From contig NZ_AULT01000050.1 of NCBI RefSeq assembly GCF_000422425.1, forward strand, positions 1 through 46,698: 46,698 nt of DNA. Direction: 5' to 3'. Within the stretch, counting starts at the first letter, position 1. Each line of letters opens with the position of its first letter. Origin of the DNA: Oceanospirillum beijerinckii DSM 7166. GTDB taxonomy: Bacteria; Pseudomonadota; Gammaproteobacteria; Pseudomonadales; Halomonadaceae. The notes below the pieces were generated by a model that saw only the letters and a program-made list of their open reading frames with translations, was not told the DNA's origin and did not search any database. The position numbers were made by a program, and so were the translations under genes. Shown piece by piece: positions 8,277-41,585 of this stretch.

Positions 8277-8375
8277 GTGTCGGCCTAAGCTTATGTCTAG
8301 CTCTGGCGACGGATAAAAATATCGATATTTTGCTAGAATGTCGTTTTCTTTTTGCTAGTGCGAGATAAAGCCGCA

Positions 8376-9263: not shown

Positions 9264-9433
9264 ATTATTTTTTGACCGTGCTACCTTAAGCAAAAGTATT
9301 TCGATGTTTTTTGTAGCGAAAGCATGCCGTACTTTTTGTATAGGTATCAGGTCTTATATGAGCAAAGAGAGGCTTGAGCTTGAGTATTTAACTCAGGGTA
9401 GTGAATGTTTAAGGCTTTTACAGGAGATTAGGT

Positions 9434-9607
9434 ATGATAGAAGTTATTGCTGTTATTGTGTTTGCTTTGATCTTTGGGCTAGCTATTGCACGCAAGAAGA
9501 ATAAGCAGGGCAAAAAACGAATTGGAAAATATTCCAAACGCCGCAGTCATGGTGTCGAGCATGACAATGGTTTGGGTGATGACGGCGGTGATAGTGGTTC
9601 TGACTGA
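9434..9607 (+). CDS. small single-helix membrane protein, 57 residues
   Basis: A small gene with a strong ribosome site (AGGAG, 7 bases before ATG). The product starts MIEVIAVIVFALIFGLAIA, one membrane helix. A very basic segment follows (RKKNKQGKKRIGKYSKRR), then an acidic Gly/Asp tail (DDGGDSGSD). The positive-inside rule places the C terminus in the cytoplasm. No family is recognised. The longer open frame overlapping it in another phase (9304-9504) has no comparable start signal, so this is the better gene. Confidence 0.6.
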   Translation: MIEVIAVIVFALIFGLAIARKKNKQGKKRIGKYSKRRSHGVEHDNGLGDDGGDSGSD

Positions 9608-9683
9608 ACCACTCTTTTTACACACCTTGATACTTAAAGCCTAAATCACTGCGTTACCCGCTTTGGTGGGGATGATTGTCCAG

Positions 9684-10559: not shown

Positions 10560-10578
10560 CTTTTTTTAAGATTTTATT

Positions 10579-10603
10579 ATCACTAATGATCATTTTTAAT
10601 GAT
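10579..10603. promoter_or_regulatory. LysR-type operator sites
   Basis: Two abutting palindromes share two bases: ATCACTAATGAT (10579-10590) and ATCATTTTTAATGAT (10589-10603). The second contains a perfect T-N11-A core (TCATTTTTAATGA). The position, just upstream of the LysR gene and facing the divergent monooxygenase, is typical for autoregulation and activation. Confidence 0.55.
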
Positions 10604-10723
10604 GGCTAGCCTAGCATAAAATTAGGGTTTAGCGCAGTTGTACATAGAAGTCACAGTAGAAAATTAGAGAAACAGAAATACTGGGCTCCTATCGCTTTTG
10701 TTTCGTTATGCAAGGAATTTATG

Positions 10724-11797
10724 ATGTCTGACTTACTGTTATCCAATGACCGCAGTATTTTAAGCTTGCTGGATCTTTTGGGCACAGAACTACCTATTAT
10801 CCAAGCCCCAATGGCGGGTGCACAGGATGAAACCTTAACTGTAGCCGTATCAAAAGCCGGTGGATTAGGCTCTTTGCCCTGCGCCATGTTAAAAGCTGAA
10901 CAACTGGATCAGGCTTTGGCAACTATCACTGCCCAGACGGATAAACCTTATAACGTAAATTTCTTTTGCCATACACCTGCTGTTCCTGATGATGTGATAG
11001 AAAAGAAATGGCGAGAGCAGCTCAAACCCTATTACCAGGAGTGGGGGATTGATGGCGACACTATTCCAGCGGGGCCAGGGCGTGCCCCTTTTGATCAGCA
11101 GATGGCTGATGTGTTGCACAAATACAAACCTCGGGTTGTGAGTTTTCACTTTGGTTTGCCGAAGGACAGTCTTTTACAGTCCGTTAAGCAGATGGGAGCC
11201 AAGGTGCTATCCAGTGCAACCACTGTTGAGGAGGCTGTTTGGCTGGAGCAAAACGGAGTCGATGCTATTATTGCTCAGGGTATTGAGGCGGGTGGTCATC
11301 GGGGAATGTTTTTAACTGAAGATCTGGGTAGTCAGAAGGGGACATTGGAGTTGGTGGCTGATATCGTTGACTCTGTTTCCGTGCCTGTGATTGCTGCGGG
11401 TGGCATTATTTCACCGGATGATGTCAGGGCAGCATTAGCTGCCGGTGCCAGTGCCGTTCAGGTGGGGACGGCTTATCTGTTGACCCCGGAAGCAACAACC
11501 TCTGAAATTCACCGTAAAGCTCTGCAGTCAGAACAGGCGCAGCATACTGAGTTAACCAATCTTTTTTCCGGCCGACCTGCACGGGGTATTGTGAATCGCC
11601 TTATCTCTGAACTGGGGCCGATCAATCCACAGGCACCCGCATTCCCTTTGGCGACCTCAGCTGTTGCTCCTTTAAGAGTCGCAGCCGAAAAGCAAGGTCT
11701 TGGTGATTTCTCTCCATTGTGGGCCGGACAAAATACCACTGGTCTGTCTTGCCTGTCTGCAGCCGACCTGACCCGCAAGTTAGGCAGTAGTCACTAA
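10724..11797 (+). CDS. nitronate monooxygenase (2-nitropropane dioxygenase family)
   Basis: An FMN-dependent TIM-barrel enzyme that oxidises alkyl nitronates such as propionate 3-nitronate. Visible family features are the N-terminal IIQAPMAG, the KPYNVNFFCH segment, and IAQGIEAGGHRG with the conserved active-site histidine near residue 192. The FMN-phosphate loops VIAAGGI and GASAVQVGTAYL follow. Length is normal for the family (357). Two ATG codons are adjacent; the second (10724) is 7 bases from AAGGA and fits better than the first (10721). It is divergent from its probable LysR regulator. The physiological role is probably detoxification of nitro compounds. Confidence 0.9.
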   Translation: MSDLLLSNDRSILSLLDLLGTELPIIQAPMAGAQDETLTVAVSKAGGLGSLPCAMLKAEQLDQALATITAQTDKPYNVNFFCHTPAVPDDVIEKKWREQLKPYYQEWGIDGDTIPAGPGRAPFDQQMADVLHKYKPRVVSFHFGLPKDSLLQSVKQMGAKVLSSATTVEEAVWLEQNGVDAIIAQGIEAGGHRGMFLTEDLGSQKGTLELVADIVDSVSVPVIAAGGIISPDDVRAALAAGASAVQVGTAYLLTPEATTSEIHRKALQSEQAQHTELTNLFSGRPARGIVNRLISELGPINPQAPAFPLATSAVAPLRVAAEKQGLGDFSPLWAGQNTTGLSCLSAADLTRKLGSSH

Positions 11798-11830
11798 GCG
11801 CCTTTTCCTGCCCTCATGCCCTGCTTTCTG

Positions 11831-11873
11831 TAGGCTGCTGCTTTTTTTAGGCTGCTGCTTTTTTTAGGCTGCT
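11831..11873. repeat. 17-bp tandem repeat, about 2.5 copies
   Basis: The unit TAGGCTGCTGCTTTTTT occurs at 11831-11847 and 11848-11864, with a partial third copy at 11865-11873. It lies just downstream of the monooxygenase gene. The T tracts could help end transcription, and the array looks like replication-slippage DNA. Confidence 0.6.
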
Positions 11874-11979
11874 ATAGGGCAGTACGGGCTGTTCGAAAGG
11901 CTAAGTCAGCTATTCGTTGGTCTTCGTTTCACGGTGGCTTTTGTGCACATACTTAAAGATCTGATACCGTATGAGTTGA

Positions 11980-12001
11980 AATATATGAAATAACATATAT
12001 T
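11980..12001 (+). promoter_or_regulatory. ArsR operator-like palindrome
   Basis: AATATATG (11980-11987) and CATATATT (11994-12001) form a perfect 8-bp inverted repeat with a 6-base centre, about 95 bases before arsR. The size and A+T-rich symmetry fit ArsR/SmtB operators. A second palindrome with the same half-site lies between arsR and the GAPDH gene. Confidence 0.55.
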
Positions 12002-12095
12002 ATCGACAGCCATTCAGTCCATGTGATCAAACGGCCTGATGGCGGCAGTGTGAAGGCCGGGTGGTATGAGTGCGCTTGAGATATGAGGTGGTTTG

Positions 12096-12449
12096 ATGAG
12101 CGTAGAGACGGTTCAATTCTTTAAGTGTTTAGCGGATGAAACCCGTCTGCGTTGTCTGCTGTTGATTGAACAGGAGCAGGAGCTTTGCGTCTGTGAACTG
12201 ATGGCAGCACTGGATGAGAGCCAACCTAAGATCTCCCGACATCTGGCCCAGTTGAGAAAGTGCGGCATTTTGATGGATCGTCGCCAGGGGCAGTGGGTGT
12301 TTTATCAATTGTCGCCAGAGCTACCGCAATGGGCGAGACAAGTACTGACCGATACGGCTAACGCCAATGTCCATTTTCTGCAATCAAACCTGGATAATCT
12401 GAATAAGATGGGCGCGCGTCCGGAGCGACTCTCCAGCTGTTGCAGCTAA
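12096..12449 (+). CDS. arsR: arsenic-responsive ArsR repressor
   Basis: A winged-helix metalloregulator that leaves its operator when arsenite binds. The sensor motif ELCVCEL carries the two cysteines that, with a third, bind As(III) in E. coli-type ArsR. The DNA-recognition part ESQPKISRHLAQLRKCGIL is nearly the same as in that protein. The C terminus ends in SSCCS, so further thiols are available. The start is the ATG after GAGGTG (12096); a TTG one codon upstream is less likely. It heads the arsR, GAPDH, arsJ unit, and the palindrome about 95 bases upstream suits autoregulation. Confidence 0.92.
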   Translation: MSVETVQFFKCLADETRLRCLLLIEQEQELCVCELMAALDESQPKISRHLAQLRKCGILMDRRQGQWVFYQLSPELPQWARQVLTDTANANVHFLQSNLDNLNKMGARPERLSSCCS

Positions 12450-12476
12450 AAATTTTTGATTCAAATATCTGTTTTT

Positions 12477-12488
12477 TCATATATATGA
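12477..12488. promoter_or_regulatory. second CATATATATG palindrome, between arsR and GAPDH
   Basis: TCATATATATGA is a perfect 12-bp palindrome that shares the CATATAT half-site of the palindrome upstream of arsR. It lies 28 bases after the arsR stop and 39 before the GAPDH start, so ArsR may control an internal promoter here. The alternative is chance A+T-rich symmetry. Confidence 0.4.
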
Positions 12489-12527
12489 CTTTTCATACCT
12501 GTAGCTAAACATTAGGGTGAAGCAAAG

Positions 12528-13544
12528 ATGAGTTCGGTAAAAAAAATCAAAGTCGGTATCAATGGTTTTGGCCGTATGGGCCGCTTGGCAATGCGTGCGG
12601 CCTGGGATTGGCCTGAGATGGAGTTTATCCGCATCAATGATCCTGCGGGGAACGCTGAAACTCTGGCGCATCTGATCACTTTTGATTCTATTCATGGCCG
12701 CTGGAAAGAGGCCAGTGCTGAAGGCGATCAGATGATGATTGAAGGTCAGGCGCTGACGGTCACTCAGAATAAAACTATCGCAGAAACCGACTGGTCCGAT
12801 TGTGATCTGGTGATTGAAGCCTCTGGTAAGATGAAAACCAAAGAGCTGCTACAGGCTTATCTGGATCAAGGTGTTAAGCGTGTGGTTGTGACTGCTCCGG
12901 TTAAGGAAGAAGGCGTGCTAAACGTGGTGATGGGTGTCAACCAGCACTTGTATGATCCTGAGCAGTTCCCGATTGTGACAGCGGCATCCTGCACCACTAA
13001 CTGTTTGGCTCCGGTTGTGAAGGTGATCCACGAAAAACTGGGTATTAAACACGGTTCTATGACCACCATCCACGATATTACCAATACACAAACTATTCTG
13101 GATGCGCCTCATAAGGATCTGCGTCGTGCCCGTGCCTGTGGTATGAGCCTGATCCCGACAACGACGGGTTCTGCCACTGCGATCACCCATATCTTCCCTG
13201 AGCTGAAAGGCAAGCTGAATGGTCATGCGGTACGTGTGCCTCTGGCCAATGCTTCTCTGACCGACTGTGTATTTGAGGTAGAAAAGTCGACCTCTGAAGA
13301 AGAGGTGAATGCACTGCTACAAGAGGCCGCAGAGGGTGAGTTGAAAGATATTCTAGGTTATGAAGAGCGCCCTCTGGTGTCTATTGATTACCGTACCGAT
13401 CCACGTTCCAGCGTGGTGGATGCGCTGTCGACTATGGTGGTCAATGGTACTCAGGTGAAACTGTATGTTTGGTATGACAACGAGTGGGGCTACGCCAATC
13501 GCACAGTTGAGTTGGCCCGTATGGTCGGTTTAATGGATCAGTAA
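12528..13544 (+). CDS. ArsJ-associated glyceraldehyde-3-phosphate dehydrogenase
   Basis: A GAPDH-type enzyme. The Rossmann start is [16 protein letters not shown], the catalytic Cys155 sits in ASCTTNC, and the partner histidine is in TIHDITNTQ (about 182). In arsenate-resistance clusters this enzyme adds arsenate to glyceraldehyde-3-phosphate, giving 1-arseno-3-phosphoglycerate for export by ArsJ. Its position between arsR and arsJ strongly supports that role over central glycolysis. The ribosome site is a modest GGGTGA upstream of the ATG. Length (338 residues) is normal. Confidence 0.9.
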
Positions 13545-13694
13545 CCGTCATTTAATCCGTAATTGAATCACGATTGGTCGCTGTGTTTTTGGTAACGGTG
13601 CTGTCATTGCCTTTGCCATCATTAGAGCTTCTCTGTCTCTTTGCAGCGCAGCGACTGATATGAAATTGACGGCTAATACAACTGGAGATAAGTA

Positions 13695-14918
13695 ATGTTA
13701 AGTCAGCTGTCACCGGCGGTGCGTCAGTACCTGATCGTGACCGGAAACTATTGGGCTTTTACCTTAACCGATGGTGCCTTGCGCATGTTGGTGGTTCTGC
13801 ATTTCCATGCCTTGGGTTATAGCCCGTTGGAAATTGCCCTGTTGTTTCTGTTTTATGAGTTTTTTGGTGTGATCACTAATCTGGTAGGTGGCTGGCTGGG
13901 AGCTCATCTGGGGCTAAACCGCACCATGAATATCGGTTTGGCGATGCAGGTGATCGCCTTGTGCATGCTGCTGGTGCCCGCCAGTTGGCTAACGGTACCC
14001 TGGGTGATGGCGGCTCAGGCGCTGTCAGGTATTGCTAAAGACCTGAACAAGATGAGCGCTAAAAGCTCTATCAAGCTGTTAGTGCCGGAAAATGCTCAAG
14101 GTAGCTTGTATCAGTGGGTCGCGATTCTTACTGGATCAAAAAATGCGCTTAAGGGTGTTGGTTTCTTTCTGGGTGGTTTGCTATTAGCCCTATTAGGTTT
14201 TACCGGAGCCATTGGCGCTATGGCGGTTATGCTGGCCGTGGTATGGGTGTTTAGTGTCTTAAGCCTGAAAAAAGATCTGGGCAAAGCCAAAAACAAGCCT
14301 AAGTTCAAGGATATGTTATCCAAGAGCAAACCCGTGAATATGCTCTCTGCCGCACGCCTGTTTCTGTTTGGTGCCCGTGATGTCTGGTTTGTTATCGCCC
14401 TGCCGGTTTATCTGGCCGCAGAGTTTGGTTGGGATCATGCTTATGTCGGTGGTTTTCTGGCGCTGTGGGTGATCGGCTACGGTATTGTGCAATCATTGGC
14501 CCCTTATGTGACCGGCAAACGCAGTGGTCAGGTGCCTGATGGTAAAACGGCTTTTGTCTGGGCTGGTGTGTTGATGCTAACCCCTGCGTTGATTGCATTA
14601 GCGTTAAGCAATCAGGTTAGCCCGCAGATCAGTTTATTGGGTGGCTTGATGATCTTTGGTGCGCTGTTTGCAGTGAGCTCCTCACTGCACAGCTATTTGA
14701 TTGTCAGTTATGCCGGACGTGACGGTGTATCGCTGGATGTGGGCTTTTACTATATGGCCAATGCTGCGGGGCGTCTGTTGGGTACAGTGCTGTCTGGTTG
14801 GATCTTTCAGGTAGCAGGGCTTGAAGCCTGCTTGTGGGTCTCCAGCTTGATGCTGCTGGTAGCGACGGGTGTTTCTTTGGCATTGCCCAGTCAGAAGGCG
14901 TCTTCAACCCGATATTAA
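13695..14918 (+). CDS. arsJ: ArsJ organoarsenical efflux permease (MFS)
   Basis: A 407-residue major-facilitator transporter with about 12 hydrophobic helices. The N-terminal region TGNYWAFTLTDGALRMLVVL and the loop GIAKDLNKMSAKSSIKLLV are characteristic of ArsJ. In other bacteria ArsJ exports 1-arseno-3-phosphoglycerate made by the neighbouring GAPDH, which gives arsenate resistance. GGAGA precedes the ATG. The 150-base gap from the GAPDH stop shows no terminator, so co-transcription is plausible. A terminator hairpin follows at 14963. Confidence 0.92.
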   Translation: MLSQLSPAVRQYLIVTGNYWAFTLTDGALRMLVVLHFHALGYSPLEIALLFLFYEFFGVITNLVGGWLGAHLGLNRTMNIGLAMQVIALCMLLVPASWLTVPWVMAAQALSGIAKDLNKMSAKSSIKLLVPENAQGSLYQWVAILTGSKNALKGVGFFLGGLLLALLGFTGAIGAMAVMLAVVWVFSVLSLKKDLGKAKNKPKFKDMLSKSKPVNMLSAARLFLFGARDVWFVIALPVYLAAEFGWDHAYVGGFLALWVIGYGIVQSLAPYVTGKRSGQVPDGKTAFVWAGVLMLTPALIALALSNQVSPQISLLGGLMIFGALFAVSSSLHSYLIVSYAGRDGVSLDVGFYYMANAAGRLLGTVLSGWIFQVAGLEACLWVSSLMLLVATGVSLALPSQKASSTRY

Positions 14919-27082: not shown

Positions 27083-27784
27083 TTAAACCACCAGAAGATA
27101 GCCCTTATTACGAATAGTTTTAATGATGCTGGGGTTGGATGGATTATCTCCAAGCTTGTTGCGAATTCGGGAAATGTTAATGTCAATGGCACGGTTGCTG
27201 CCGTCGTAATCAATGCCCCTGAGGTTCTCGAAGATATACTCCCGCGAAAGAATGTTGCCTGCATTACGGGTTAATAGCCATAAGAGGTCATATTCGGGAT
27301 CGGACAGAGTGATGGGTTGACCATTAAGCGAGACATTACGACTACGATTGTCAAGCTCCAGACCATTTACATTAAGCACTGCATTGCTATTAGTTGGACC
27401 ATCGGCGCCTTCACCAGAACGAGTCGTACGGCGCAATAAGGCCTTGATATGGGCTAATAACAGTCTGGGTTCTACTGGCTTGCCCAGGTAGTCATCAGCG
27501 CCAATTTCAAGTCCCAGAATTTCATCAATATTGTCACTGCGAGCCGTTAACATCAAAATTGGTTTATCAAATTTTGGGCGCACCTTTTGACAAACTTCAA
27601 GTCCATCCAGACCCGGTAGCATCAGATCCAAGATCACCAGATCTGGTTGTTGTTGCAGAATCTGATCCACCGCATTGATGCCATCACTGACAATATCTAC
27701 CTGATAACCATTACTGATCAGGTAACTGGCAGTCAGTTCGGCTAAATCAAAGTCGTCTTCAACAAGTAGAATTTTTTTTTCCAT
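27083..27784 (-). CDS. OmpR-family response regulator (RstA-like)
   Basis: A two-component transcription regulator. The receiver domain has acidic residues EDD near residue 10, phospho-Asp53 in ILDLMLPG and the conserved LTAR and KP. A C-terminal winged helix follows. The end LRGIDYDGSNRAIDINISRIRNKLGD resembles E. coli RstA. The ATG giving MEKKILLVEDD is chosen over an upstream TTG (27817) that would overlap the preceding gene. It closes a minus-strand row with a sensor kinase, an exported protein and a SLAM-like barrel protein. The partner kinase is almost certainly the one at 29933-31570. The targets are unknown; the divergent repeat-protein gene is the obvious candidate. Confidence 0.9.
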   Translation of the reverse strand: MEKKILLVEDDFDLAELTASYLISNGYQVDIVSDGINAVDQILQQQPDLVILDLMLPGLDGLEVCQKVRPKFDKPILMLTARSDNIDEILGLEIGADDYLGKPVEPRLLLAHIKALLRRTTRSGEGADGPTNSNAVLNVNGLELDNRSRNVSLNGQPITLSDPEYDLLWLLTRNAGNILSREYIFENLRGIDYDGSNRAIDINISRIRNKLGDNPSNPSIIKTIRNKGYLLVV

Positions 27785-27806
27785 AAGATGTTTACTCTGC
27801 TTATGC

Positions 27807-29090
27807 TTAGGAGCCAAAAGGGTATTTAAAGGATAAAGTCACCAGCTCTCGTTGGTACTCATGTATGTCGTGATTGGAGTGGCGTTTATACCAATTGTAG
27901 GAAAGCTCCATGTTAAGCTGCTGATAGATATTCAGTGCGTTGAGTTTAAGGCTGTGTTTATAGGTAGTGTCCTGGCGCTTATCCCTGTAGTGCGTTTCAA
28001 TGCCCCGATAGTAGCTGCTGGTTTTTCCTGTACCTAGCTCGACGATAAAGCGTTGTTCTTCAAACAAGGTAAATGGCACGGATATATTTAGGCCATATTC
28101 ACTGGCAGTATAGGAATGAACTGTACTTTTCAGGTTTGCGGCGGTATGGCCAGCTTTAAGACGTATGATAACCTGCTTTGGCAGCATAAACTTATAGCTC
28201 ACACTGGGACTGAGGTGATAGCCATTTTTGTCTCTGTCATCGCTGTCATAATAATCTTTAAAGTTAGCTTCCAGGTTCAGAGAAAGGTTGGAACGATCAA
28301 AGCGATAGTCCAGCATGCTTGAAAGATCGTAGTAGTTTACGAGTTTCTGTTTATCTAAACCGATATGAGTCATAGCAACCCTGCCCTGCAGACTCCATTG
28401 TTTTGAGAAGTTGTATTTTGCTCCTGAGCGCGCATTGATAAAGTAAATATCAGAGCCATCGACATCCAGATAGTCTTTAAAATACAGGCTAACACCAGCG
28501 TGATAAAACAAAGACTCACCTTGCTGAGGCTGTTTTAACGTTACGGGAGTAAAACGGGCAAAGTCATACTGCAGGCCGTAAAAACTATCATTTTTTTGTA
28601 CGGAGTCTTTGGTCAGTTCTCCGATATCAATAGACTGATCTGCCGGGGCTATATTGGCATTGCTATCATAACCAGAGAAAACATTAATATTTTGGCGCGA
28701 TAGGCTTTTGCTTTTGCCCTCTGGTTGGCGCTGTGCTATCAGAGCCAGAAATTGCTTAATATTGTTGCGCACCACATCAGGAATATCCTCGTGAACTGCC
28801 ACCTCCTGAGCCAGTTTACGGGCATAATCATATTCCTCGTTTGCAAAATAACTGGAGGCTAATTCCAGCTTAATGCGTAGGTTACCAGGGTGCAGCTGTA
28901 AACCAGAATGCAGGATTTGGATTGATTTCTTAACATTACCCTGTTGACGTTCATCCACGGCGGCTTTGATCAATGCCGAAGGTTGCGGCACTGTTTCTCC
29001 CCAGGTTACTCCCGGCAGGATAAAGCACAGGCTTAAAATAAGCACTGTGAGCCAAGTGGCAGTTCCATTGTTTGAGCTTAGGTAGGTCAC
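27807..29090 (-). CDS. SLAM-like outer-membrane protein (TPR plus DUF560 barrel)
   Basis: A 427-residue protein built like surface lipoprotein assembly modifiers. It has a signal peptide (to about residue 31), then TPR-type helical repeats at about 37-125 (ERQQGNVKKSIQILHSGLQL, LASSYFANEEYDYARKLAQE). A C-terminal beta-barrel of about 280 residues follows, rich in alternating aromatic strands (DYLDVDGSDIYFINARSGA, YRFDRSNLSLNLEANF). Known SLAMs help carry specific partner proteins across the outer membrane. The start codon is GTG with a weak ribosome site. It lies 22 bases after a small exported protein, its most likely client, and just before the response regulator. A porin-like role without translocation is the alternative. 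Confidence 0.75.
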   Translation of the reverse strand: MTYLSSNNGTATWLTVLILSLCFILPGVTWGETVPQPSALIKAAVDERQQGNVKKSIQILHSGLQLHPGNLRIKLELASSYFANEEYDYARKLAQEVAVHEDIPDVVRNNIKQFLALIAQRQPEGKSKSLSRQNINVFSGYDSNANIAPADQSIDIGELTKDSVQKNDSFYGLQYDFARFTPVTLKQPQQGESLFYHAGVSLYFKDYLDVDGSDIYFINARSGAKYNFSKQWSLQGRVAMTHIGLDKQKLVNYYDLSSMLDYRFDRSNLSLNLEANFKDYYDSDDRDKNGYHLSPSVSYKFMLPKQVIIRLKAGHTAANLKSTVHSYTASEYGLNISVPFTLFEEQRFIVELGTGKTSSYYRGIETHYRDKRQDTTYKHSLKLNALNIYQQLNMELSYNWYKRHSNHDIHEYQRELVTLSFKYPFGS

Positions 29091-29112
29091 AAGCTTTAAC
29101 CGTCTTTTATTA

Positions 29113-29670
29113 TTAATCCACTGGTTTTATTGAAAGGTCATCAGCGATGTTATGCTCAATTTCAGGCTCTGGCATGGTTTCCAATAAGCTATCCGGCATT
29201 GTTTCAATCGTGATACTGTCTACGTTTTCAAGAGCAATGCCTTCCGCCTGCAAAAGATCGACAAGTTCATTGGGTAGCTCTGATACTTTGGACAGATCCA
29301 GTGTTCCTTCGGATAGGCCCGTGGCGTCCACTCCCGTCAGTGTGATGATGTCCGTTACTTCAAAGTCAGAGTCGGCTGACTCTGCCGGTGAGACACTAAA
29401 CGAGACATTGTAGCGTGTATCTGATTGCTGGTAGTCCAGCAGAGAACTTTGATCCAGCTCATGAAGCAGCTTTTCATCTGTGCCTGCAATACCACTGCCA
29501 TAGTGGTGACCTTCACTATCCAGTAGTGGGGTGTCCGATTCCATTTCCTGGCGGAACCTGTCTGGAGACTGTCCCCAGCTACCCCACTGATTGGCATTTT
29601 CGGCCAAGGCAGGGCTATTGGTTAAAATCAAAATCGAGAAAAGGATATATCTCATGGCGCTATATCTCAT
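29113..29670 (-). CDS. small exported acidic protein, unknown function
   Basis: A 185-residue protein with a Sec signal peptide (RYILFSILILTNSPALA, cleavage before ENANQ) and no lipobox. The mature part is acidic and polar with no cysteine and no recognised domain. It contains QWGSWGQSPDRFRQEM, a short beta-rich middle (YNVSFSVSPAES, DIITLTGVDATGL) and a C terminus rich in Glu, Asp and Pro (TMPDSLLETMPEPEIEHN). Two ATG codons are possible (29670 and 29655); the second gives a more compact signal. It sits immediately upstream of the SLAM-like gene and is plausibly its substrate or partner. Confidence 0.7.
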   Translation of the reverse strand: MRYSAMRYILFSILILTNSPALAENANQWGSWGQSPDRFRQEMESDTPLLDSEGHHYGSGIAGTDEKLLHELDQSSLLDYQQSDTRYNVSFSVSPAESADSDFEVTDIITLTGVDATGLSEGTLDLSKVSELPNELVDLLQAEGIALENVDSITIETMPDSLLETMPEPEIEHNIADDLSIKPVD

Positions 29671-29932
29671 GGCACAGTGTTAAGGGCATATCGAATGACG
29701 CTATCTCTCACAGGCTATACTTTATTGTACTTTCCTTTGAGCACTTACAAACACTTCTCTATAACAACATACACTATGCCCAGCATCAGGCAGAAGAGTG
29801 TCGAAACATATTGGTGTAAGTGAGTACAGGTATTGATTAATCCGGGCTTTGTCAGGCAATGCATTATCTTAAAGCCAGATGGCAAAGGTCAATATTAGTG
29901 CTGGGTATCGTGTTTGTATCTGCATGTTATCT

Positions 29933-31570
29933 TTATGTTTTATCTGCTTTTTTGTCGGTTTTATATACCGGTTGTTCCCTGCTCAGAAGTGCGATTGGCA
30001 AATCAATAATAAAACTTGCGCCGCCTAATGATGGACTCTGTTCGACATAAACGTGACCGCCATGATGCTGAGTCACTTTTTGTACAATAGGCAGCCCCAA
30101 ACCAAAGCCCCCTAAAGCTCGGTTACGGCTTTTATCCAGACGGATAAACGGGTCAAAGATACGTTCACGCTCTTCTTCAGGAATGCCAGAGCCATCATCT
30201 TCTACGCAGATATGAATATATTTTTCAGTGACTTTTATCGTGGTCAGAATATGACTTTGACAGTGGCGACAAGCATTGTTAAGGAGGTTCTGAATCGCTC
30301 TTAGCAGTAAGGCGTCATCGGCACGCAGTATGAGTCGTTCACAATTAGAGCCATTATGAAACGCGATATCAGGGTGTTGAATTGTCAGGTCATACACCAT
30401 GCTCTGAACCAGGGGCAGCAGGTCAAATTCCTCCTTATCCAGCGGTTGAGGATTGTCATCCAGGCGGGCGCAGGTAAGAATTTCATCAATCATATGATTC
30501 AGGTTGCCCAGATCTTTTTTCATGCCTGAGATATGGGGTCGCTGGGTATCCAGGCAATCGATACTCATGCCTTCAACCCGAAACATCATGCGGGCAACCG
30601 GGGTGCGCAGTTCATGGGATATGTCGTGAGTCAGCTGGCGCTGCTGTTTTATCAGGCCTTCTATGCGCAGCATCATGGCGTTCACGCTGTCTGCCATACG
30701 GGATATACCATCATTGCCGCTTAGCTCAATTGGATTGGCTTTTGAGGTGCCTGCTAAGTTGATCCCCTGTTCCAGGCGTTTAAGCTTTTTCTCAAAAGGA
30801 GCAATTAAAATATAACCTGCTGCCAGCACTAGCAGAGCGCCGGAAATAACTAACAGGAAAATGATAGACACGGGATACCATTGGAAAATATTGATTGGAC
30901 CCACGGTTAGATAGAGACCACTGTTGCCAAAGCGAGCGTAGACTTTAATAAAAGGATTGCTGGATAGGGTGTCATTAAGATTGATCACAATATCGCCACG
31001 GGCTAATTGGCGCAGTTGAGACTGATCCAGTTCGGTTTCTTTCGCGGTCACCAGTGTCAAATCGTAGCTAAAATTCTGATCCAGCTGTTTTAGGATCGCT
31101 TCCCGTTGCTGCTTGGGGTGACGGCCTAACTCATTCAGAATCAATAAAGCAGTCATACGGGTGACGGTTTGGTTAATATCTTCCAGTTTAGCCTGAACAA
31201 AGTGCTGACTATTTCCCGGTAGAGGTAAAGCAATTGAGGCTGTTTGCTGACCAGGATCTGAGGCGATCAGTAACGCTTGATTGTCTTTTTTCAGATGATA
31301 TAGAGTAAAGCGTTCTGGCTCTTTCAGAGGGCCCACTTCAAGAGGAATGCCTGTCAGGCGCTCTACAATCTCGATCCATTGCTGTTGTTTGTCGCCGTCA
31401 TGGCGCACAATGCCTGCAGCCATCAATGAAAATGTCCCGCCTACGTTGTTAACCAAATAGTTTTCGTATCGAATCTGATTGACTAGTTGTAGAGCCAGAT
31501 AGCCAAGCAATGCAGCCAGCAGCAAGATGCAGATTAATCCGCTGTACAGTTTGAAAAAAATACTTTTCAT
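29933..31570 (-). CDS. sensor histidine kinase (RstB-like)
   Basis: A 545-residue membrane kinase. The first helix covers residues 9-30, a periplasmic sensor about 31-230, and a second helix 232-257. HAMP follows, then a HisKA domain with phospho-His319 in HDISHELRTP, and an ATPase domain (NLLNNACRH, EDDGSGIPEEERERIFDPF, GGFGLGLPIVQ). Domain order and the H-box resemble E. coli RstB. A Lys/Asp-rich tail (KTDKKADKT) ends it. It is the first gene of the minus-strand group and lies 262 bases before the exported protein, so that gap may hold a second promoter. The order kinase, client, barrel, regulator is unusual, since the pair is normally adjacent. The signal is unknown. Confidence 0.9.
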   Translation of the reverse strand: MKSIFFKLYSGLICILLLAALLGYLALQLVNQIRYENYLVNNVGGTFSLMAAGIVRHDGDKQQQWIEIVERLTGIPLEVGPLKEPERFTLYHLKKDNQALLIASDPGQQTASIALPLPGNSQHFVQAKLEDINQTVTRMTALLILNELGRHPKQQREAILKQLDQNFSYDLTLVTAKETELDQSQLRQLARGDIVINLNDTLSSNPFIKVYARFGNSGLYLTVGPINIFQWYPVSIIFLLVISGALLVLAAGYILIAPFEKKLKRLEQGINLAGTSKANPIELSGNDGISRMADSVNAMMLRIEGLIKQQRQLTHDISHELRTPVARMMFRVEGMSIDCLDTQRPHISGMKKDLGNLNHMIDEILTCARLDDNPQPLDKEEFDLLPLVQSMVYDLTIQHPDIAFHNGSNCERLILRADDALLLRAIQNLLNNACRHCQSHILTTIKVTEKYIHICVEDDGSGIPEEERERIFDPFIRLDKSRNRALGGFGLGLPIVQKVTQHHGGHVYVEQSPSLGGASFIIDLPIALLSREQPVYKTDKKADKT

Positions 31571-32048
31571 AGAGTTTTAACGCTTTTCGCTCGTTCAGTA
31601 TGCGTGTCAGCACCAAGTGTTCTACCAAAATAGTTACCTGAACAACAGTCTATCTGTAAAAGGAGTGGCATAAAAAAGAGTGGCATAACCTGTCTTTGAC
31701 TACTGAATCCAAGATTCTACAGGCTTTGGTGGGGGCATATGTTCTTGGTTTGTATAGGTAATGTAGCAAGCTCTTTGTTAATCGCACTGTATTGGTATAA
31801 GTCTTCGTTGGGGATTAGATTTGCTAGTGCTTTTATTCAAAGAGACTGAGTCAGAATTTCACCTATACTTGATTTGTCAGGTCTAATCCTTGTATCGATT
31901 TTGAGATGGGTCATATTTTATTGGCTTTTATTTTATTCTTTAAAAACAAAGGGTTGTATAGAGTAAAAAGTCTATGGCTTATCGGTTAAGGTGAAATGAT
32001 GATAAAAGAAGTGATTCAGTGAACCTCTCTGTTTTGAGAGTTAAGAAG
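31571..32048. other. divergent control region, first part
   Basis: A long A+T-rich spacer between the sensor kinase and the repeat-protein gene. It holds an 11-bp direct repeat GAGTGGCATAA (31663-31673 and 31678-31688, period 15). No gene or clear promoter was recognised. Confidence 0.45.
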
Positions 32049-32064
32049 GCACAAAATTTTGTGC
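32049..32064. promoter_or_regulatory. perfect 16-bp palindrome upstream of repeat-protein gene
   Basis: GCACAAAATTTTGTGC is a perfect palindrome, 203 bases before the repeat-protein start codon. It is a good candidate operator. It shares its last two bases with the hairpin that follows, so binding and RNA folding might affect each other. Confidence 0.5.
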
Positions 32065-32096
32065 AGTGTTTAACAGAATTAAATTCTAAACACTGC
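32063..32096 (+). repeat. 10-bp inverted repeat with inner stem
   Basis: GCAGTGTTTA (32063-32072) pairs perfectly with TAAACACTGC (32087-32096), and AGAAT (32075-32079) can pair with ATTCT (32083-32087). In RNA this would be a stable leader hairpin about 170 bases before the start codon. No T tract follows, so it is probably not a terminator. Confidence 0.5.
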
Positions 32097-32266
32097 CAGA
32101 CTGACTGGCACATATACACACTTACATAAGAGTATTTCGCTATTTTTCGGCGAGCTGCTGAAGAGTGAAGTCATCTGCTACTGCTATAGAGAGATTTTTG
32201 TGTGAGTGCTTAATCAACTTCGGCCCGGTGGCCCAGGCGATACAAAACTTAGAAGGGTATTGAAAG

Positions 32267-35701
<3,435 letters not shown>

Positions 35702-35774
35702 CCCTTGATGGTAGATGGGCTTGCAATAGATAAGATGGTTTAGTGATCTGAAAACCAGGTGCTAAGCAGGAGGA

Positions 35775-35819
35775 TTCAGAGGGTGGTCCAAAATCCAATT
35801 AAATGGATCAGCCTCTGAA
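35775..35819 (+). repeat. stem-loop 70 bases after the repeat gene
   Basis: TTCAGAGG (35775-35782) pairs with CCTCTGAA (35812-35819), with an inner ATCC/GGAT pair. It may stabilise the 3' end of the long mRNA. No T tract follows. Confidence 0.4.
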
Positions 35820-35868
35820 AATGCCGACCAAGACACATTATTCGCTCAGGTATGTACCAGGTTGAGCC

Positions 35869-35906
35869 AACCGATTGATTTAAAAATAATTTTAAATCAA
35901 TCGGTT
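35869..35906. repeat. perfect 17-bp hairpin plus a third partial arm
   Basis: AACCGATTGATTTAAAA (35869-35885) pairs perfectly with its complement (35890-35906) over a 4-base loop. A further partial copy, AAATAAATCGGTTC, follows directly. It could act as a bidirectional terminator or be the remnant of a mobile element end. Confidence 0.6.
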
Positions 35907-36037
35907 CTTAAATAAATCGGTTCTATGGGTGCTTTAATAGGTTAAATAGCTGAACCGTTAGCGCTTAACAGGGCCGGTCAAAAGCAAAAGTTAACTTAGC
36001 CCAGCAATGGGTATTTACGAAGAGATGGAGAAACACC

Positions 36038-36184
36038 ATGGCGATTCAAGAAGCGCAAATGAACAAAGTTAAAGCTGAAGCGGGTATTGCTATCGCGCGT
36101 GCAAAAGCTCGCCAAGCGCAGATCAATGCTAACTCCCATGTGTTAAAAGCGAAGCAGATGATTGCGAAAGCTCAGGCCAGGTAA
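36038..36184 (+). CDS. 48-residue Ala/Lys/Gln-rich helical peptide
   Basis: A short gene with a clear ribosome site (GGAG, 7 bases before ATG). The product (MAIQEAQMNKVKAEAG, then IAIARAKARQAQINANSHVL) is almost free of helix breakers and strongly basic, with no cysteine or aromatic residue. One amphipathic helix is expected. It lies 335 bases after the very acidic repeat protein, so charge complementarity with it is possible but speculative. No family is recognised. Confidence 0.55.
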   Translation: MAIQEAQMNKVKAEAGIAIARAKARQAQINANSHVLKAKQMIAKAQAR

Positions 36185-37353: not shown

Positions 37354-40011
37354 TTACTGCCTCTGAGACCATTGCTGAGCGATAGTAAAACTCCCTTGCA
37401 TAATCACCTCCAGAGGCTGCCAGATTGCCCGGCAGGCAGCATTATCGTTCATATCGGCGTCCGCTTCCAATGTTCGTAGCGTTTCTCCAGCGCGAATAAA
37501 GCCTAAGGTTTCGCAGGCGCCAGCCAATTTATGGGCCAGTTGCGTAGTTTCGTAAAGGTCGTTTTCCTGCAAACTGGCTTGTAACAAGGGCCAGAGCGTA
37601 TCTTGCAGTTGGTAAAAGTTAGCCATCATATCCGCAACTTTTTTCTCACCCAACATCTGCTGATGTACCGATACTATTTTTGAGTCCAGCAGTTTTTGGT
37701 TCAGGTGTTTTGGGTTCAGGTGTTTTGGGTTCAGTAGTGACGCCTCTAAGTAAGAGGAGCCTACAGGCTTAGAATGAGCTTCCAGTTGATCTTGCAGCTC
37801 AGCTTGAGCAGTCTGTGTCGGTAGTCGCTTTATAGCAGATACAGATGAGCTGTTTTCAACATCTGGAGGCGTAAGACTATCAGCTGCCTCAAGTGTCTCC
37901 GTTGACTCAAACTGTTCAGATGAAGAGTATTTAACTGAAGAGTTCAGGCAAGCCTCCAGTGCAGCAACAAGTTGCTGCCTTTTGACGGGTTTAGCGACGA
38001 CATTCTGCAAACCCGCTTGTAGGTATTGATGAATATCATCGGGGCGGACGCTGGCAGTCAGAGCTATAATCGGCGTGTTGAAGTTTATGCCATTGGGATC
38101 AGTACGCAATTGCGCACTAATTTCCAAACCGCTCAGTCCCGGTAGATGCATATCCATTAAAATACAGTCAAAGCAATATTGCTGGCACAGTTGCAGTGCC
38201 TGTTGGCCTTCCTCTGCGAGACTGATCAGATAGTGGCCTTCCAGCAGGCCTTGCACCACTTGCTGATTAATCTCCACATCTTCTACCAGTAGAATATGAG
38301 GAGTAGATGCTTTTAGCGCTGGACTGGTGGGTAGGTGCTTACTATAGGTCTTGCTATTAGCAGACACCTCCAACGGTGTATCTGCTTCAGCATCATGTAC
38401 TGCTATCAGATTTTGTTCAGTGCTAACCTGCAGTGGCAGTTCTAACCAAAAGCAACTGCCTGTGCCCGGCTGGCTCTCAACCCCCATATGACCATTAAGC
38501 GCCTGCGCTAAAGCCTTGCTGATTGCCAATCCCAAACCGGTACCACCAAAACGCCGGGTAATGCTCTCATCGGCCTGGGTAAAACGATCGAAGATATGTT
38601 GCTGTAACTCGGGTTCTATACCGATACCTGTGTCCTGCACCTCAAAACGCAATATGTGCTGTTCAATAGTTTGGGCGCGTTGCTCGATATGTTGGCTGCC
38701 CTGCTCAACGCTTAGTGCGTGCTGTTGATCGGTTTCATTTTCGGTTTTGTCTTTGTCTTCTGTTTCGGTGATCAGATAACAGCTCAGAGTTACGCCTCCT
38801 TGGTCGGTAAACTTAATAGCATTGGCCAGCAGATTAGTCAGAATCTGGCGTAAACTTCCCGCTGCACCAAAATAGCAGGGTGGGAGATCATCCGGTTGCT
38901 GTAGAGCCAAAGTGAGCTGTTTTTTCTCTGCTCCCGGAGTCATCAGCATCATCAGGTTAGTGAGCAGTTGCTGTAGTGAGAAATCACTCTCACTGGAGAT
39001 ATAAGCCCCCTCCTCCAGACGACCGTATTGCAGCACATGATCAAAGGTCTCCATCAGGGAGTCTGTAGCGTCATGCAGTACCCGGATATGATCCTGCTGT
39101 ACCTTGGTAAGCGAGCTGTTTTCCAACAGCTGAATCATGCCCAGCATACCGTTCATCGGCGTGCGAATCTCATGACTCATGGTCGAGAGGAACTGAGACT
39201 TAGCGTTGCTGGCATCTTCTGCGGCTTCCTTGGCACGACGCAGACTGGCGGTGCGGCGCTCCACCATCTGTTGCAGCTGATCCCGATCCCGTTGAATTGC
39301 CCGGCCCATCTCATTGAGTGCGCCAGCCAGCTGATCCAGTTCATCCGGTTGTTTGGGTTTTGCCCGTATCAGCGTTAGCTCTTCACCCAGCTGGCCCGCC
39401 CCAATGCGTCTGCTGTAATCTGCCATGCTTTCCAGGTGACGGGTGATCTGACGTTGTACGATCACCAGAATCACCAATACGATTAACAACACCAACAGGG
39501 TTTGGTTGAGTAATACACTTAAACCGGTCTGCCAGATACGGGCATAGACCGCCTGCATATCAAAGCTAACCTCTAAACGGCCCAGATGACGCTGTTGCAG
39601 GCTGGCGGTGGTATGAATCAGATTAAAGCTATGGATCTGCACCTGATGGTTCTCTGGCGGTGCTTCCAATGCCGGTAGCTGGAGATTACCACTGAGTTTT
39701 TTATCTTGTAAGCTGAGATAGATCACATCCGGCAGGGTATGGATGCCCAGTAACTGCAGCTCTACCTGAGCTTGATCCACATCCCACAGGCTTTTGGCCA
39801 GACTGGCCAGATAACTGCTGCGAATTAGCTCCACTTGTTGATCAATGGCTTTAAGTTCGCGACGATAATCCAGTGATAGCTGCAGCGCAGTAGAGAAGAG
39901 AATAAAGATAAAACTGCACGCGATGACATACACCATAATGCGGTAACCCAGCGGGTGTTGTCGGGCGTAACGGGGGCGTTTTTTTAGCCAGAAACTCATA
40001 AGCCAGCTCAT
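37354..40011 (-). CDS. hybrid sensor kinase with REC and HPt domains
   Basis: An inner-membrane phosphorelay kinase of about 885 residues. It has a helix at 25-45, a periplasmic part to 165, a helix at 166-187 and HAMP. HisKA carries phospho-His at about 280 (TMSHEIRTPMNGMLGM), followed by ATPase (GTGLGLAISKALAQ), receiver (LLVEDVEINQQ, ILMDMHLPGLSG) and C-terminal HPt (LAHKLAGACETLGF). The layout is that of TorS. The linker before HPt contains a slippage-type duplication (NPKHLNPKHLNQK) over a 15-base DNA unit. The start is the ATG at 40011; a TTG just upstream is less likely. It begins 7 bases after the solute-binding protein, which probably presents the ligand, and should pass phosphate to the regulator at 40860. 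Confidence 0.93.
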   Translation of the reverse strand: MSWLMSFWLKKRPRYARQHPLGYRIMVYVIACSFIFILFSTALQLSLDYRRELKAIDQQVELIRSSYLASLAKSLWDVDQAQVELQLLGIHTLPDVIYLSLQDKKLSGNLQLPALEAPPENHQVQIHSFNLIHTTASLQQRHLGRLEVSFDMQAVYARIWQTGLSVLLNQTLLVLLIVLVILVIVQRQITRHLESMADYSRRIGAGQLGEELTLIRAKPKQPDELDQLAGALNEMGRAIQRDRDQLQQMVERRTASLRRAKEAAEDASNAKSQFLSTMSHEIRTPMNGMLGMIQLLENSSLTKVQQDHIRVLHDATDSLMETFDHVLQYGRLEEGAYISSESDFSLQQLLTNLMMLMTPGAEKKQLTLALQQPDDLPPCYFGAAGSLRQILTNLLANAIKFTDQGGVTLSCYLITETEDKDKTENETDQQHALSVEQGSQHIEQRAQTIEQHILRFEVQDTGIGIEPELQQHIFDRFTQADESITRRFGGTGLGLAISKALAQALNGHMGVESQPGTGSCFWLELPLQVSTEQNLIAVHDAEADTPLEVSANSKTYSKHLPTSPALKASTPHILLVEDVEINQQVVQGLLEGHYLISLAEEGQQALQLCQQYCFDCILMDMHLPGLSGLEISAQLRTDPNGINFNTPIIALTASVRPDDIHQYLQAGLQNVVAKPVKRQQLVAALEACLNSSVKYSSSEQFESTETLEAADSLTPPDVENSSSVSAIKRLPTQTAQAELQDQLEAHSKPVGSSYLEASLLNPKHLNPKHLNQKLLDSKIVSVHQQMLGEKKVADMMANFYQLQDTLWPLLQASLQENDLYETTQLAHKLAGACETLGFIRAGETLRTLEADADMNDNAACRAIWQPLEVIMQGSFTIAQQWSQRQ

Positions 40012-40018
40012 CAATCGC

Positions 40019-40849
40019 TTAAGGCGTATTCAGATACTGAAAGCTGTAATATGCCCTTAGACGCTCTATGGTGCCGTCATCGTTCATCTCTTTCAGTCGT
40101 TGATTCAGGTAGGGTAGGTAGCTGTTCAGACCGCTCTGACGGCCAATGGCCAGATAATAATGCTCTGTGGTGATCTCGGTATCCAGCGCCATTATCTGAT
40201 CATGAAAACCCAACTTGTGGCTTTGCAACTGGCCGCTCAGTTTACCTCCGGGCATATAGTCGATCCGACCGAGAGCCAGTTTGGAAAAGTTTTGTTCCCC
40301 ACGGGAGACATACTCAATGCGGCTGTTCTGTCTGATAAAGTGATCAAACTCATCGCCCCAGCTATCGCCCAGTAATAGACCTACGGTTTTACCTCTGAGA
40401 TCCCTGAGGTGAGTGAAGCCCATGGGCTGCTGACGATTAACAAACAGTATGACCTTGTCGGCAATAAGGGGTTGTTCGGAGTAGCGAAGATAAGCTTCCC
40501 GGCTGCTAATACGGTAGGCTGCTACTATGATATCTGCATTGCCCTGTTCCACTTCCAGCAGGCAGCGCTTCCAGTTACTGTCGGCGCTGAGCTGTACCTT
40601 AAAGCCCAACTCCGCAAACAGTTGCTTCGTTACTGCTGGAGCGAGACCCATTAAGCGGTTTTCACTGTGCCAGGATACCGGAGGGTAAAAGGGGTGACCG
40701 CAGGCTTTTAGTGAGCGATTGGGTTCAGCATAAGCTGTTAAAGCCATACAGAACACAAGCAAGCCCGGTAGACATAGCAACAGCCGTTTGTTTAGAAAAG
40801 CAGATGGATAGAGAGCAGAATATCGCCCTCTACCGAATACAGTGATCAT
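40019..40849 (-). CDS. periplasmic solute-binding protein, family 3, linked to kinase
   Basis: A 276-residue protein with an N-terminal signal segment (LNKRLLLCLPGLLVFCMALTAYA, cut before EPNRS). A family-3 solute-binding fold follows (SLKACGHPFYPPVSW, VEQGNADIIVAAYRISSREAY, LRGKTVGLLLGDSWGDEF). No ABC permease or ATPase accompanies it. It is sandwiched between a response regulator and a hybrid kinase, so it probably acts as a sensor subunit, as TorT does for TorS. The start at 40849 avoids overlapping the regulator gene; longer in-frame forms reach into it. The ligand is likely a small polar molecule; its identity is unknown. Confidence 0.88.
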   Translation of the reverse strand: MITVFGRGRYSALYPSAFLNKRLLLCLPGLLVFCMALTAYAEPNRSLKACGHPFYPPVSWHSENRLMGLAPAVTKQLFAELGFKVQLSADSNWKRCLLEVEQGNADIIVAAYRISSREAYLRYSEQPLIADKVILFVNRQQPMGFTHLRDLRGKTVGLLLGDSWGDEFDHFIRQNSRIEYVSRGEQNFSKLALGRIDYMPGGKLSGQLQSHKLGFHDQIMALDTEITTEHYYLAIGRQSGLNSYLPYLNQRLKEMNDDGTIERLRAYYSFQYLNTP

Positions 40850-40859
40850 GGAGATAGAC

Positions 40860-41585
40860 CTAGTTGAGATCAACAGGTTTAGGGGTAAACAGATAACCCG
40901 CACCATGCACGGTCAGGATCAGTTTAGGGTTGGTCGTATCATCACCTAATTTGCGGCGCAGTCGGCCAATCAGCACATCAACGGTGCGATCACTGGGCAC
41001 CCATTCCCGGTTACGAATCTGATCCAGAATCTGTTCCCGGCTCATCACTTCACCCGCTTGCTCCATCAGGCAGGTCAGCAGTTTAAATTCACCTTCGGTC
41101 AGCTGCGTTTCCTGACGGCGCTCATCAAGCAGTTGACGGCGATCCATGTTCAGTTTCCAGCGATCGAAACTTTTAAAGCTATGAGGCAGGGCATCGGTGG
41201 GTTTGCTTTGGCTATGACGAACCCGGCGGATCAGGTTTTTACTGCGCGCCAGAATCTCACGGGGATTAAAGGGCTTGGTGACGTATTCGTCGGCACCACA
41301 CTCCAGGCCAATCAGGCGATCCACCTCATCCTGACGACCGGTGACCAGAATAATGCCCACTTCACTGTGAACCCTCAGCTCACGGGTTAGTGTCAGGCCA
41401 TCCTTACCGGGTAAACGAATATCCAGCAGGACAACATCTATGGCTTCACTATTAAGAATCCCTTCCGCTTCTTCGGCGGTTTCGGCGCAAAACACCCGAT
41501 AGCCTTCCTCTTCAAAATAACTGCTCAGGCAATCTCGGGTGATCTCTTCGTCGTCGACAACCAGAATCTTGGCGTCTGTATGCAT
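40860..41585 (-). CDS. OmpR-family response regulator (TorR-like)
   Basis: The output regulator of the phosphorelay. The receiver domain has DDEE near residue 11, phospho-Asp55 in VVLLDIRLPG and the conserved KPFNPRE. The winged-helix output domain ends REWVPSDRTVDVLIGRLRRKLGD. GGAAG lies 7 bases before the ATG. It leads a three-gene unit with the solute-binding protein and hybrid kinase. About 131 bases upstream two GTTTACA heptamers lie 11 bp apart, the spacing used by OmpR-family regulators, so autoregulation is plausible. It is divergent from glyA. Confidence 0.92.
   Translation of the reverse strand: MHTDAKILVVDDEEITRDCLSSYFEEEGYRVFCAETAEEAEGILNSEAIDVVLLDIRLPGKDGLTLTRELRVHSEVGIILVTGRQDEVDRLIGLECGADEYVTKPFNPREILARSKNLIRRVRHSQSKPTDALPHSFKSFDRWKLNMDRRQLLDERRQETQLTEGEFKLLTCLMEQAGEVMSREQILDQIRNREWVPSDRTVDVLIGRLRRKLGDDTTNPKLILTVHGAGYLFTPKPVDLN

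What the first reader, a model, noticed from the sequence alone, without database searches (positions are those of the whole stretch)
27083..36184. Two-component, SLAM-like barrel, exported protein and giant acidic repeat protein: a possible new surface-display locus
Seen: an RstB-like kinase, a small exported acidic protein, a TPR plus DUF560 barrel protein and an RstA-like regulator lie in a row on one strand. Divergent from them is a 1144-residue repeat protein without a Sec signal, followed by a 48-residue basic helix peptide. Known: SLAM proteins help move specific partners across the outer membrane. Inferred: the two-component pair controls production of an acidic matrix or surface protein, and the barrel with its client helps its delivery or anchoring. 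Splitting a kinase-regulator pair around an outer-membrane protein suggests selection to keep the set together.
Basis: partly seen in the sequence, partly recalled or inferred. Interest (0 to 1): 0.75.

Follow-up and report, generated by a model that had tools for sequence, protein, structure and literature searches.

The report
Two-component system wrapped around membrane barrel
A scattered set of marine bacteria carry one four-gene operon in which a sensor kinase and its regulator enclose a small exported protein and an outer-membrane barrel, probably an undescribed signalling or export unit, while the giant repeat protein beside it here was found in this one genome only.

Summary
The minus-strand set is a conserved operon: RstB-like kinase, small exported protein, TPR plus 14-strand barrel, RstA-like regulator. 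Exported protein and barrel follow the kinase in 13 of 16 named loci from a kinase-sensor scan (the other 3 end at contig edges), a regulator then follows in 11 of 13, and the full order recurs in a genome of a separate class sample (L221). In the order sample, 103 of 114 loci with a regulator in view are ordinary regulator-then-kinase pairs without a barrel-profile hit. The two gene orders fall on opposite sides of one well-supported branch of a quick kinase tree. The exported proteins have no Pfam family; 24 of 25 carry WxxW or LDxSx[LV]. The 1144-aa repeat protein and the 48-aa peptide are not part of the conserved set: no relative in the genomes sampled. SLAM membership is marginal. Most likely an outer-membrane-linked signalling or secretion module; the mechanism is inferred.

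The parts
29933..31570 (-). RstB-like sensor histidine kinase, first gene of the operon; periplasmic sensor about residues 30-230
   Evidence: sensor model pLDDT 89.3; tree
29113..29670 (-). small exported acidic protein; WGSW shortly after the signal peptide, LDQSSLLDY motif in the middle; no lipobox
   Evidence: no Pfam or NCBIfam match
27807..29090 (-). outer-membrane protein: TPR helices (37-121) and 14-strand beta barrel (130-425); SlipAM/DUF560-like
27083..27817 (-). RstA-like response regulator, last gene of the operon; as called it overlaps the barrel gene by 11 bases
29863..29892 (-). promoter-like site (10 of 12) in the 262-base kinase/exported-protein gap; consensus match only, and the region as a whole has no clear excess of such sites (19 found, 14.6 expected)
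31571..32266 (.). divergent intergenic region between operon and repeat protein; no conserved regulator box found
32267..35701 (+). 1144-aa acidic repeat protein, 9/18-residue period, Tcp10_C (G-box)-like; N-terminal LEELEDRIAPG; only in this genome in the samples; neighbour, not a conserved member
36038..36184 (+). 48-aa basic ORF (computed pI 11.2), no relatives found; gene status open

Best explanation
The minus-strand genes 27083-31570 are a conserved four-gene unit: kinase, exported protein, TPR-barrel, regulator. Shown: the unit, its gene order, its scatter over marine Gammaproteobacteria, the predicted barrel fold, and conserved short motifs in the exported protein. Inferred: the exported protein goes through Sec to the periplasm, where its tag and acidic body are held or passed outwards by the TPR-barrel in the outer membrane. 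The kinase sensor reads either the exported protein itself or what the barrel-client pair reports about the surface. The regulator then sets expression of the unit and of whichever acidic surface protein is encoded next door. In this genome that neighbour is a lineage-specific Tcp10_C-like repeat protein. The existence and conservation of the unit are near certain; the stated confidence is for the joint role of client, barrel and kinase.
For: Exported protein and barrel after the kinase in 13 of 16 named loci, the other 3 ending at contig edges; a regulator after them in 11 of those 13. Two of the 13 (O. sediminis L089, A. japonicum L095) are the loci first seen as L014 and L017, and L081 and L088 equal L096 and L099 of the order sample. 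A genome of another family in a separate class sample has the full order (L221). In the order sample 121 of 390 genomes carry a related sensor; of 120 of 127 non-window rows fetched, 114 show a regulator: 103 are regulator-first, none of them with a barrel-profile hit at E<1e-3, and 11 are kinase-first. Kinase tree: all 103 regulator-first kinases, plus 2 without a regulator in view, form one side (105 rows, SH-aLRT 99); the other 28 rows include every module kinase in the tree. Exported proteins: W[GHQS]xW in 18 of 25 and LDxSx[LV] in 16 of 25, either in 24, against shuffled means 0.14 and 0.62; lipobox 0 of 25. L213 carries one WG protein beside a barrel and another between kinase and regulator, as expected if it links the two. 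The TPR-barrel model is confident (pLDDT 85.6). Acidic neighbours: 7 of 40 places against 0 of 189; 8 of 40 against 3 of 143 other ORFs in the same loci with a looser limit.
Against: No interaction, secretion or regulation was tested. Kinase-first pairs without barrel or exported protein exist (L097, L105, L106, L115); L208 has the exported protein without a barrel between kinase and regulator; L098 has a barrel without the exported protein in view; in L213 the barrel lies before the kinase; L094 shows no regulator within about 2 kb after the barrel; L087 has an extra 129-aa ORF before the regulator. The named loci were found with a profile of three module kinases, so they are biased towards modules. 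The exported family is held together by short motifs chosen after looking; a plain search with the window's protein over 58 genomes found no other credible member (best 0.012, with stops), and the O. sediminis pair aligns only at E 8e-5. The clients of L080 and L190 were found by the WxxW scan itself; that scan also hit 9 ORFs in 8 regulator-first loci, 8 of them with at most 4 % acidic residues and one (L191) with 15 %. No common regulator site was found. The acidic-neighbour limits were chosen after seeing the data, and several of those loci share similar neighbours.
Confidence: 0.5

Rival explanations
1. A regulated secretion operon only: a DUF560/type 11-like barrel secretes the small soluble protein as cargo, and the flanking two-component pair switches it on by an unrelated signal; neither barrel nor client takes part in sensing.
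For: DUF560 barrels with TPR domains are reported exporters of lipidated and soluble cargo (PMC8406197: passages read); the window barrel passes PF04575 and has 14 strands; Sec-type signal without lipobox in the exported protein.
Against: The client has no TbpB-like Pfam match; kinase-first order goes with client and barrel on one side of the kinase tree; L208 and L213 have a WG protein directly between kinase and regulator.
Confidence: 0.3
2. One reading: a dedicated display locus in which the barrel and its client deliver or anchor the giant repeat protein.
For: Adjacent and divergent genes; a very acidic protein that lacks a Sec signal; acidic large proteins recur next to modules.
Against: The repeat protein occurs only in this genome in the samples; other modules have other or no acidic neighbours; in O. 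sediminis the folD side is conserved without the module or the repeat gene, and the module lies elsewhere.
Confidence: 0.12
3. The barrel is a porin or polysaccharide exporter whose expression is controlled by the pair; the small protein is incidental.
For: The best-ranked solved folds are BcsC, OmpG, PelB and a polysaccharide secretin, though with TM-scores of 0.35-0.47 by query length; 6 of 14 barrels match BBP2_2 and 6 of 14 OMP_b-brl.
Against: No glycosyltransferase or synthase seen in the unit; the exported gene lies between kinase and barrel in 13 of 13 named loci with a barrel.
Confidence: 0.08

Closest known systems
SLAM / DUF560 (type 11) secretion, e.g. Slam1/2, NilB, HrpB (PMC8406197)
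   Same: N-terminal TPR plus 14-strand outer-membrane barrel, encoded beside a small exported protein
   Different: PF04575 matches only 1 of 14 module barrels at E<=0.01; the client has no TbpB-like match and no lipobox; the genes sit inside a two-component operon, and that paper's main text holds neither 'histidine kinase' nor 'response regulator'
RstA-RstB two-component system
   Same: best NCBIfam names for both proteins; related sensor region
   Different: both below the equivalog cut-offs; kinase first and regulator last instead of regulator-kinase; the genome has a separate regulator-kinase pair at G000:C6 (L171)
Kinases with periplasmic accessory or envelope-stress partners, e.g. CpxA/CpxP and Rcs/RcsF (recalled)
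   Same: a small exported protein that could inform a kinase about the envelope
   Different: here an outer-membrane barrel is part of the same operon; no sequence kinship tested
Tcp10_C / G-box proteins (CPAP, SAS-4; their role recalled)
   Same: Pfam match of the repeat protein, short DG-centred repeats
   Different: bacterial, very acidic, low complexity; no match among solved chains

Membership tests
SLAM / DUF560 barrel | PF04575 above the gathering score | tested here: met
   27.6 bits against 22 for the window protein; but 1 of 14 module barrels at E<=0.01
SLAM / DUF560 barrel | SLAM-type TPR domain (PF24575) | tested here: not met
   21.9 bits against 35.2; generic TPR_19 passes its cut-off (26.4 against 25)
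SLAM / DUF560 barrel | N-terminal TPR helices and 14-strand barrel | tested here: met
   AlphaFold2 model, 14 strands, pLDDT 85.6, pTM 0.66
SLAM / DUF560 barrel | neighbouring cargo with a TbpB-type barrel domain | tested here: not met
   no Pfam match in the window's exported protein and no such family among 14 members; fold not predicted
SLAM / DUF560 barrel | moves its partner across the outer membrane | not testable with these tools
   needs experiment
RstAB two-component system | RstA and RstB equivalog scores | tested here: not met
   230.8 of 330 and 263.1 of 478 bits
RstAB two-component system | regulator gene directly before the kinase gene | tested here: not met
   kinase first, regulator last here; 103 of 114 order loci with a regulator in view are regulator-first
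Tcp10_C / G-box | PF07202 above the gathering score | tested here: met
   129.3 bits against 36, 7 stretches; low complexity may inflate this
Tcp10_C / G-box | sequence kinship to a solved G-box | tested here: not met
   0 chains at E<=0.001
LEPR-XLL N-terminal motif proteins | NCBIfam domain match | tested here: not met
   no NCBIfam family at E<=1; the likeness of LEELEDRIAPG is recalled

The most novel reading that the evidence does not exclude
A three-compartment signalling unit: an outer-membrane TPR-barrel holds or exports a tagged acidic messenger protein, and the kinase in the inner membrane reads how much messenger is left in the periplasm, so that the state of the cell surface directly sets transcription of the barrel, the messenger and a swappable acidic surface protein next door.
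Probability: 0.3. Interest if true: 0.82.

Novelty: new variant of a known kind. Interest (0 to 1): 0.6.

Why it matters
It ties DUF560-like barrels, known as exporters, to two-component signalling through an exported protein family without a Pfam entry. If the messenger model holds, an outer-membrane barrel would be the first element of a two-component pathway, which to my knowledge is rare. Even as a regulated exporter it would define a new soluble client family for TPR-barrels. Carriers with strain names in the scan (Oceanospirillum sediminis D5, Thalassomonas sp. RHCl1) make it testable.

Tried and rejected
Repeat protein as a module member: rejected on distribution. Limits: one search scored at most two first-look candidates in the genomes listed, and needed exact peptide patterns from the first 60 residues. 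The search with the Tcp10_C family over 369 genomes was uninformative, as it missed the window's own protein too. Regulator binding site: direct repeats and RstA-box-like patterns in 350 bases upstream of 14 module kinases gave nothing shared. The sensor fold did not settle the ligand: the top-ranked match (9a65_B, E 8e-5) has an rmsd of 20.5; the ParS sensor (8ju7) aligns over 83-94 columns at rmsd 2.9-3.2, but with E 0.03-0.04. The repeat protein and the exported protein were not folded, the two structure jobs being spent on barrel and sensor. Weak hits of the LEELEDRIAPG peptide (E 0.2-4.7) were taken as chance. The idea that the whole unit is cation-sensing because its parts are acidic was considered: the first outer loop of the barrel is strongly acidic in 3 of 14 (L085, L086, L088) but not in the window, so it is left as a lead. 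Paper searches for bacterial Tcp10 proteins, LEPR-XLL, RstB with outer-membrane operons, and a six-term search on two-component systems with TPR barrels gave nothing on this unit in the listings seen.
Full report
What is there. The window lies in a genome of about 5.3 Mb. Its genus group includes Oceanospirillum sediminis: genome G002, marked same genus, carries its module on a contig of 224267 bases, as does named locus L089, with the same proteins. The genes are as reported: on the minus strand kinase (29933-31570), exported protein (29113-29670), TPR-barrel protein (27807-29090) and regulator (27083-27817), and divergently the 1144-aa repeat protein (32267-35701) and a 48-aa ORF. Barrel and regulator genes, as called, overlap by 11 bases. 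The 262-base gap between kinase and exported gene holds a promoter-like site, a consensus match only.

Conserved unit. A search with the barrel in 58 genomes found weak relatives in 6, the own genome included. Larger stretches showed the whole four-gene order in G002 (O. sediminis) and G028 (Allopseudospirillum japonicum; its regulator is in two pieces and a transposase-like fragment lies after the kinase). A profile of three kinase sensor regions (A4) then brought 16 named loci from the second of two scans of genome contigs (the first, with the repeat protein's N-terminus, found nothing). Five of these 16 are loci also seen under G handles: L089 and L095 are G002 and G028, and L081, L084 and L088 equal L096, L101 and L099. 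In 13 of 16 an exported protein and a barrel follow the kinase; the other three (L084, L091, L092) run off their contigs before a whole barrel could be seen. A regulator follows in 11 of the 13 (in L087 after an extra 129-aa ORF); in L095 it is broken and in L094 none is seen within about 2 kb. The loci belong to Oceanospirillaceae, Saccharospirillaceae, Cellvibrionales, Alteromonadaceae, Colwelliaceae and Pseudoalteromonadaceae by their record titles or tree labels. The query came from module kinases, so this set is biased.

Less biased counts. In the order sample the sensor profile hit 121 of 390 genomes. I fetched 120 of the 127 non-window rows (the 7 weakest were dropped). A regulator was in view in 114: in 103 it lies directly before the kinase, in 11 after it. 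None of the 103 has a barrel-profile hit at E<1e-3. Adding the window and three contig-end cases read gives 15 kinase-first loci. Both exported protein and barrel: window, L096, L099, L101 (barrel start only), L190, L203, L207 (barrel judged by signal, length and end, no profile hit) and L213 (barrel and one WG protein before the kinase, a second WG protein between kinase and regulator), that is 8. Exported protein alone: L208, and L201 (contig end). Barrel alone: L098, whose contig starts 185 bases before the kinase. Neither: L097, L105, L106, L115. A separate class sample of 369 genomes had 8 with a sensor hit at E<=1e-10, four of them already met in the order sample, the own genome among them. 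Of the four others, fetched, one has the full four-gene order (L221), one ends soon after the kinase (L222), and two are regulator-first (L223, L224).

Tree. In a quick tree of 133 kinases, all 103 regulator-first kinases, with two more without a regulator in view, form one side of a branch with SH-aLRT 99. The other 28 rows hold every module kinase in the tree. The root is unknown and several module branches are long, so I claim a clean split, not a single origin. The genome's own second copy (L171) is on the regulator-first side, so the window pair looks like a paralogue of the ordinary RstAB-like pair.

Exported protein. The window's has no Pfam or NCBIfam match, and 14 members show no shared Pfam family, only single weak hits. 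It is hard to find by plain search: over 58 genomes nothing credible but itself, and the O. sediminis pair aligns at E 8e-5. Among 25 exported proteins, 18 have W[GHQS]xW, shortly after the signal peptide where that is clear, 16 have LDxSx[LV], 24 have at least one; shuffled means are 0.14 and 0.62; none has a lipobox in its first 60 residues. The motifs were chosen after looking, and the clients of L080 and L190 were found by the WxxW scan itself. That scan also hit 9 ORFs in 8 regulator-first loci, 8 of them with at most 4 % acidic residues and one, in L191, with 15 %. In L080 and L081 a second WG protein lies before the kinase.

Barrel and sensor. The barrel model (A5, 14 sequences) has pLDDT 85.6, pTM 0.66, TPR helices at 37-121 and 14 strands. 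The best-ranked solved folds are BcsC, OmpG, PelB and a polysaccharide secretin, with TM-scores of 0.35-0.47 by query length; no sequence relative was found among solved chains at E below 0.1. PF04575 is passed by the window barrel (27.6 against 22) but matches 1 of 14 module barrels at E<=0.01, so 'SLAM-like' describes the architecture and not an assured membership. The sensor model has pLDDT 89.3; its top match has an rmsd of 20.5, and the best local likeness is to the ParS sensor (rmsd about 3 over 83-94 columns, E 0.03-0.04).

The repeat protein. It is very acidic, with 9-residue spacing and a Tcp10_C match. Only the own genome has it among 58 relatives (E<=1e-6) and 369 class genomes (E<=1e-8, few candidates scored per genome). 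One scan of genome contigs with its first 60 residues gave 272 pattern stretches, none confirmed, and no solved relative was found. In O. sediminis the block from folD to the serine hydroxymethyltransferase gene is conserved (folD 81 %, regulator 95 %, SHMT 93 %; 64-66 % for the two genes between), but neither module nor repeat gene is in that 17-kb stretch. The module lies on another contig, about 64 kb from the PhoX gene that is 1 kb from it in the window. So the block is accessory here.

Acidic neighbours. Looking at the genes (150 aa or more) directly beside 21 module loci, 7 of 40 places hold a protein with D+E>=18 % and K+R<=6 %, against 0 of 189 beside the 103 ordinary pairs (Fisher 3e-6); with other limits tried it was 6 or 7 against 0. 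The window's protein (17.6 % and 0.7 %) falls just short of the first limit. With >=17 % and <=6 % it is 8 of 40 against 3 of 143 other ORFs of the same loci (3e-4). By eye they are about five kinds, not compared by search: this repeat protein, LDxIFG-repeat proteins after the regulator (L082, L083, L089), lipoprotein-like proteins with a long acidic insert (L085, L086), a trypsin-like protein with DDWGDD repeats (L087), and a lipoprotein-like protein with an acidic tail (L190). The limits were set after seeing the list and related loci are not independent, so this is a lead.

Literature. Full-text searches for DUF560 with 'histidine kinase' gave 0 papers and for 'surface lipoprotein assembly modifier' with 'histidine kinase' 1 paper, on the Neisseria Fur regulon (search listing only). 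A wider search (at least 2 of 4 terms) gave 43 papers, 20 listed. The DUF560 survey PMC8406197 (passages read) has neither 'histidine kinase', 'response regulator' nor 'sensor' in its main text. Its authors say the nine other DUF560 clusters likely transport as-yet-unknown cargo. Most subscription journals are not in that library, so I claim only that these searches found no description.

Verdict. The split kinase-regulator operon around an exported protein and a TPR-barrel is real, conserved and, as far as searched, undescribed. The giant repeat protein is, on present sampling, a lineage-specific neighbour. Mechanism (client read by the kinase, barrel as gate or exporter) is inference at about even odds.

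Noticed in passing
L013 (G000:C29), 7301-14061; also L015 and L019: A second kind of TPR-barrel in this genome lies directly before a giant FecR-domain protein (1805 aa with a long EP repeat; Pfam). O. sediminis and G046 have similar barrel plus FecR-like pairs, judged by eye.
   Followed up: partly
L089:13948-15726, L082:13544-14869, L083:14274-15698: Acidic LDxIFG-repeat proteins without an evident Sec signal follow the regulator in three modules and end in aromatic residues (FAF or FWF).
   Followed up: partly
L085, L086, L088 barrel genes: The first outer loop of the barrel is expanded to 58-93 residues, about half of them D or E, in these three, against 24-27 residues in the window and seven others of 14.
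   Followed up: partly
L017 / L095: In Allopseudospirillum japonicum the module looks decaying: transposase-like fragment between kinase and exported gene, regulator in two pieces.
   Followed up: no
G538 (L098, L105, L106, L115): One genome carries four kinase-first paralogues, one with a barrel and three as bare kinase-regulator pairs.
   Followed up: no
window 37354-41585: Another signalling cluster next to folD: CHASE5 hybrid kinase, family 3 solute-binding protein and OmpR-type regulator, conserved beside folD in O. sediminis.
   Followed up: no
L087:6923-8482: Trypsin-like protein with a long DDWGDD repeat region next to the module; the WGD letters recall the WGxW tag of the exported proteins.
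   Followed up: no
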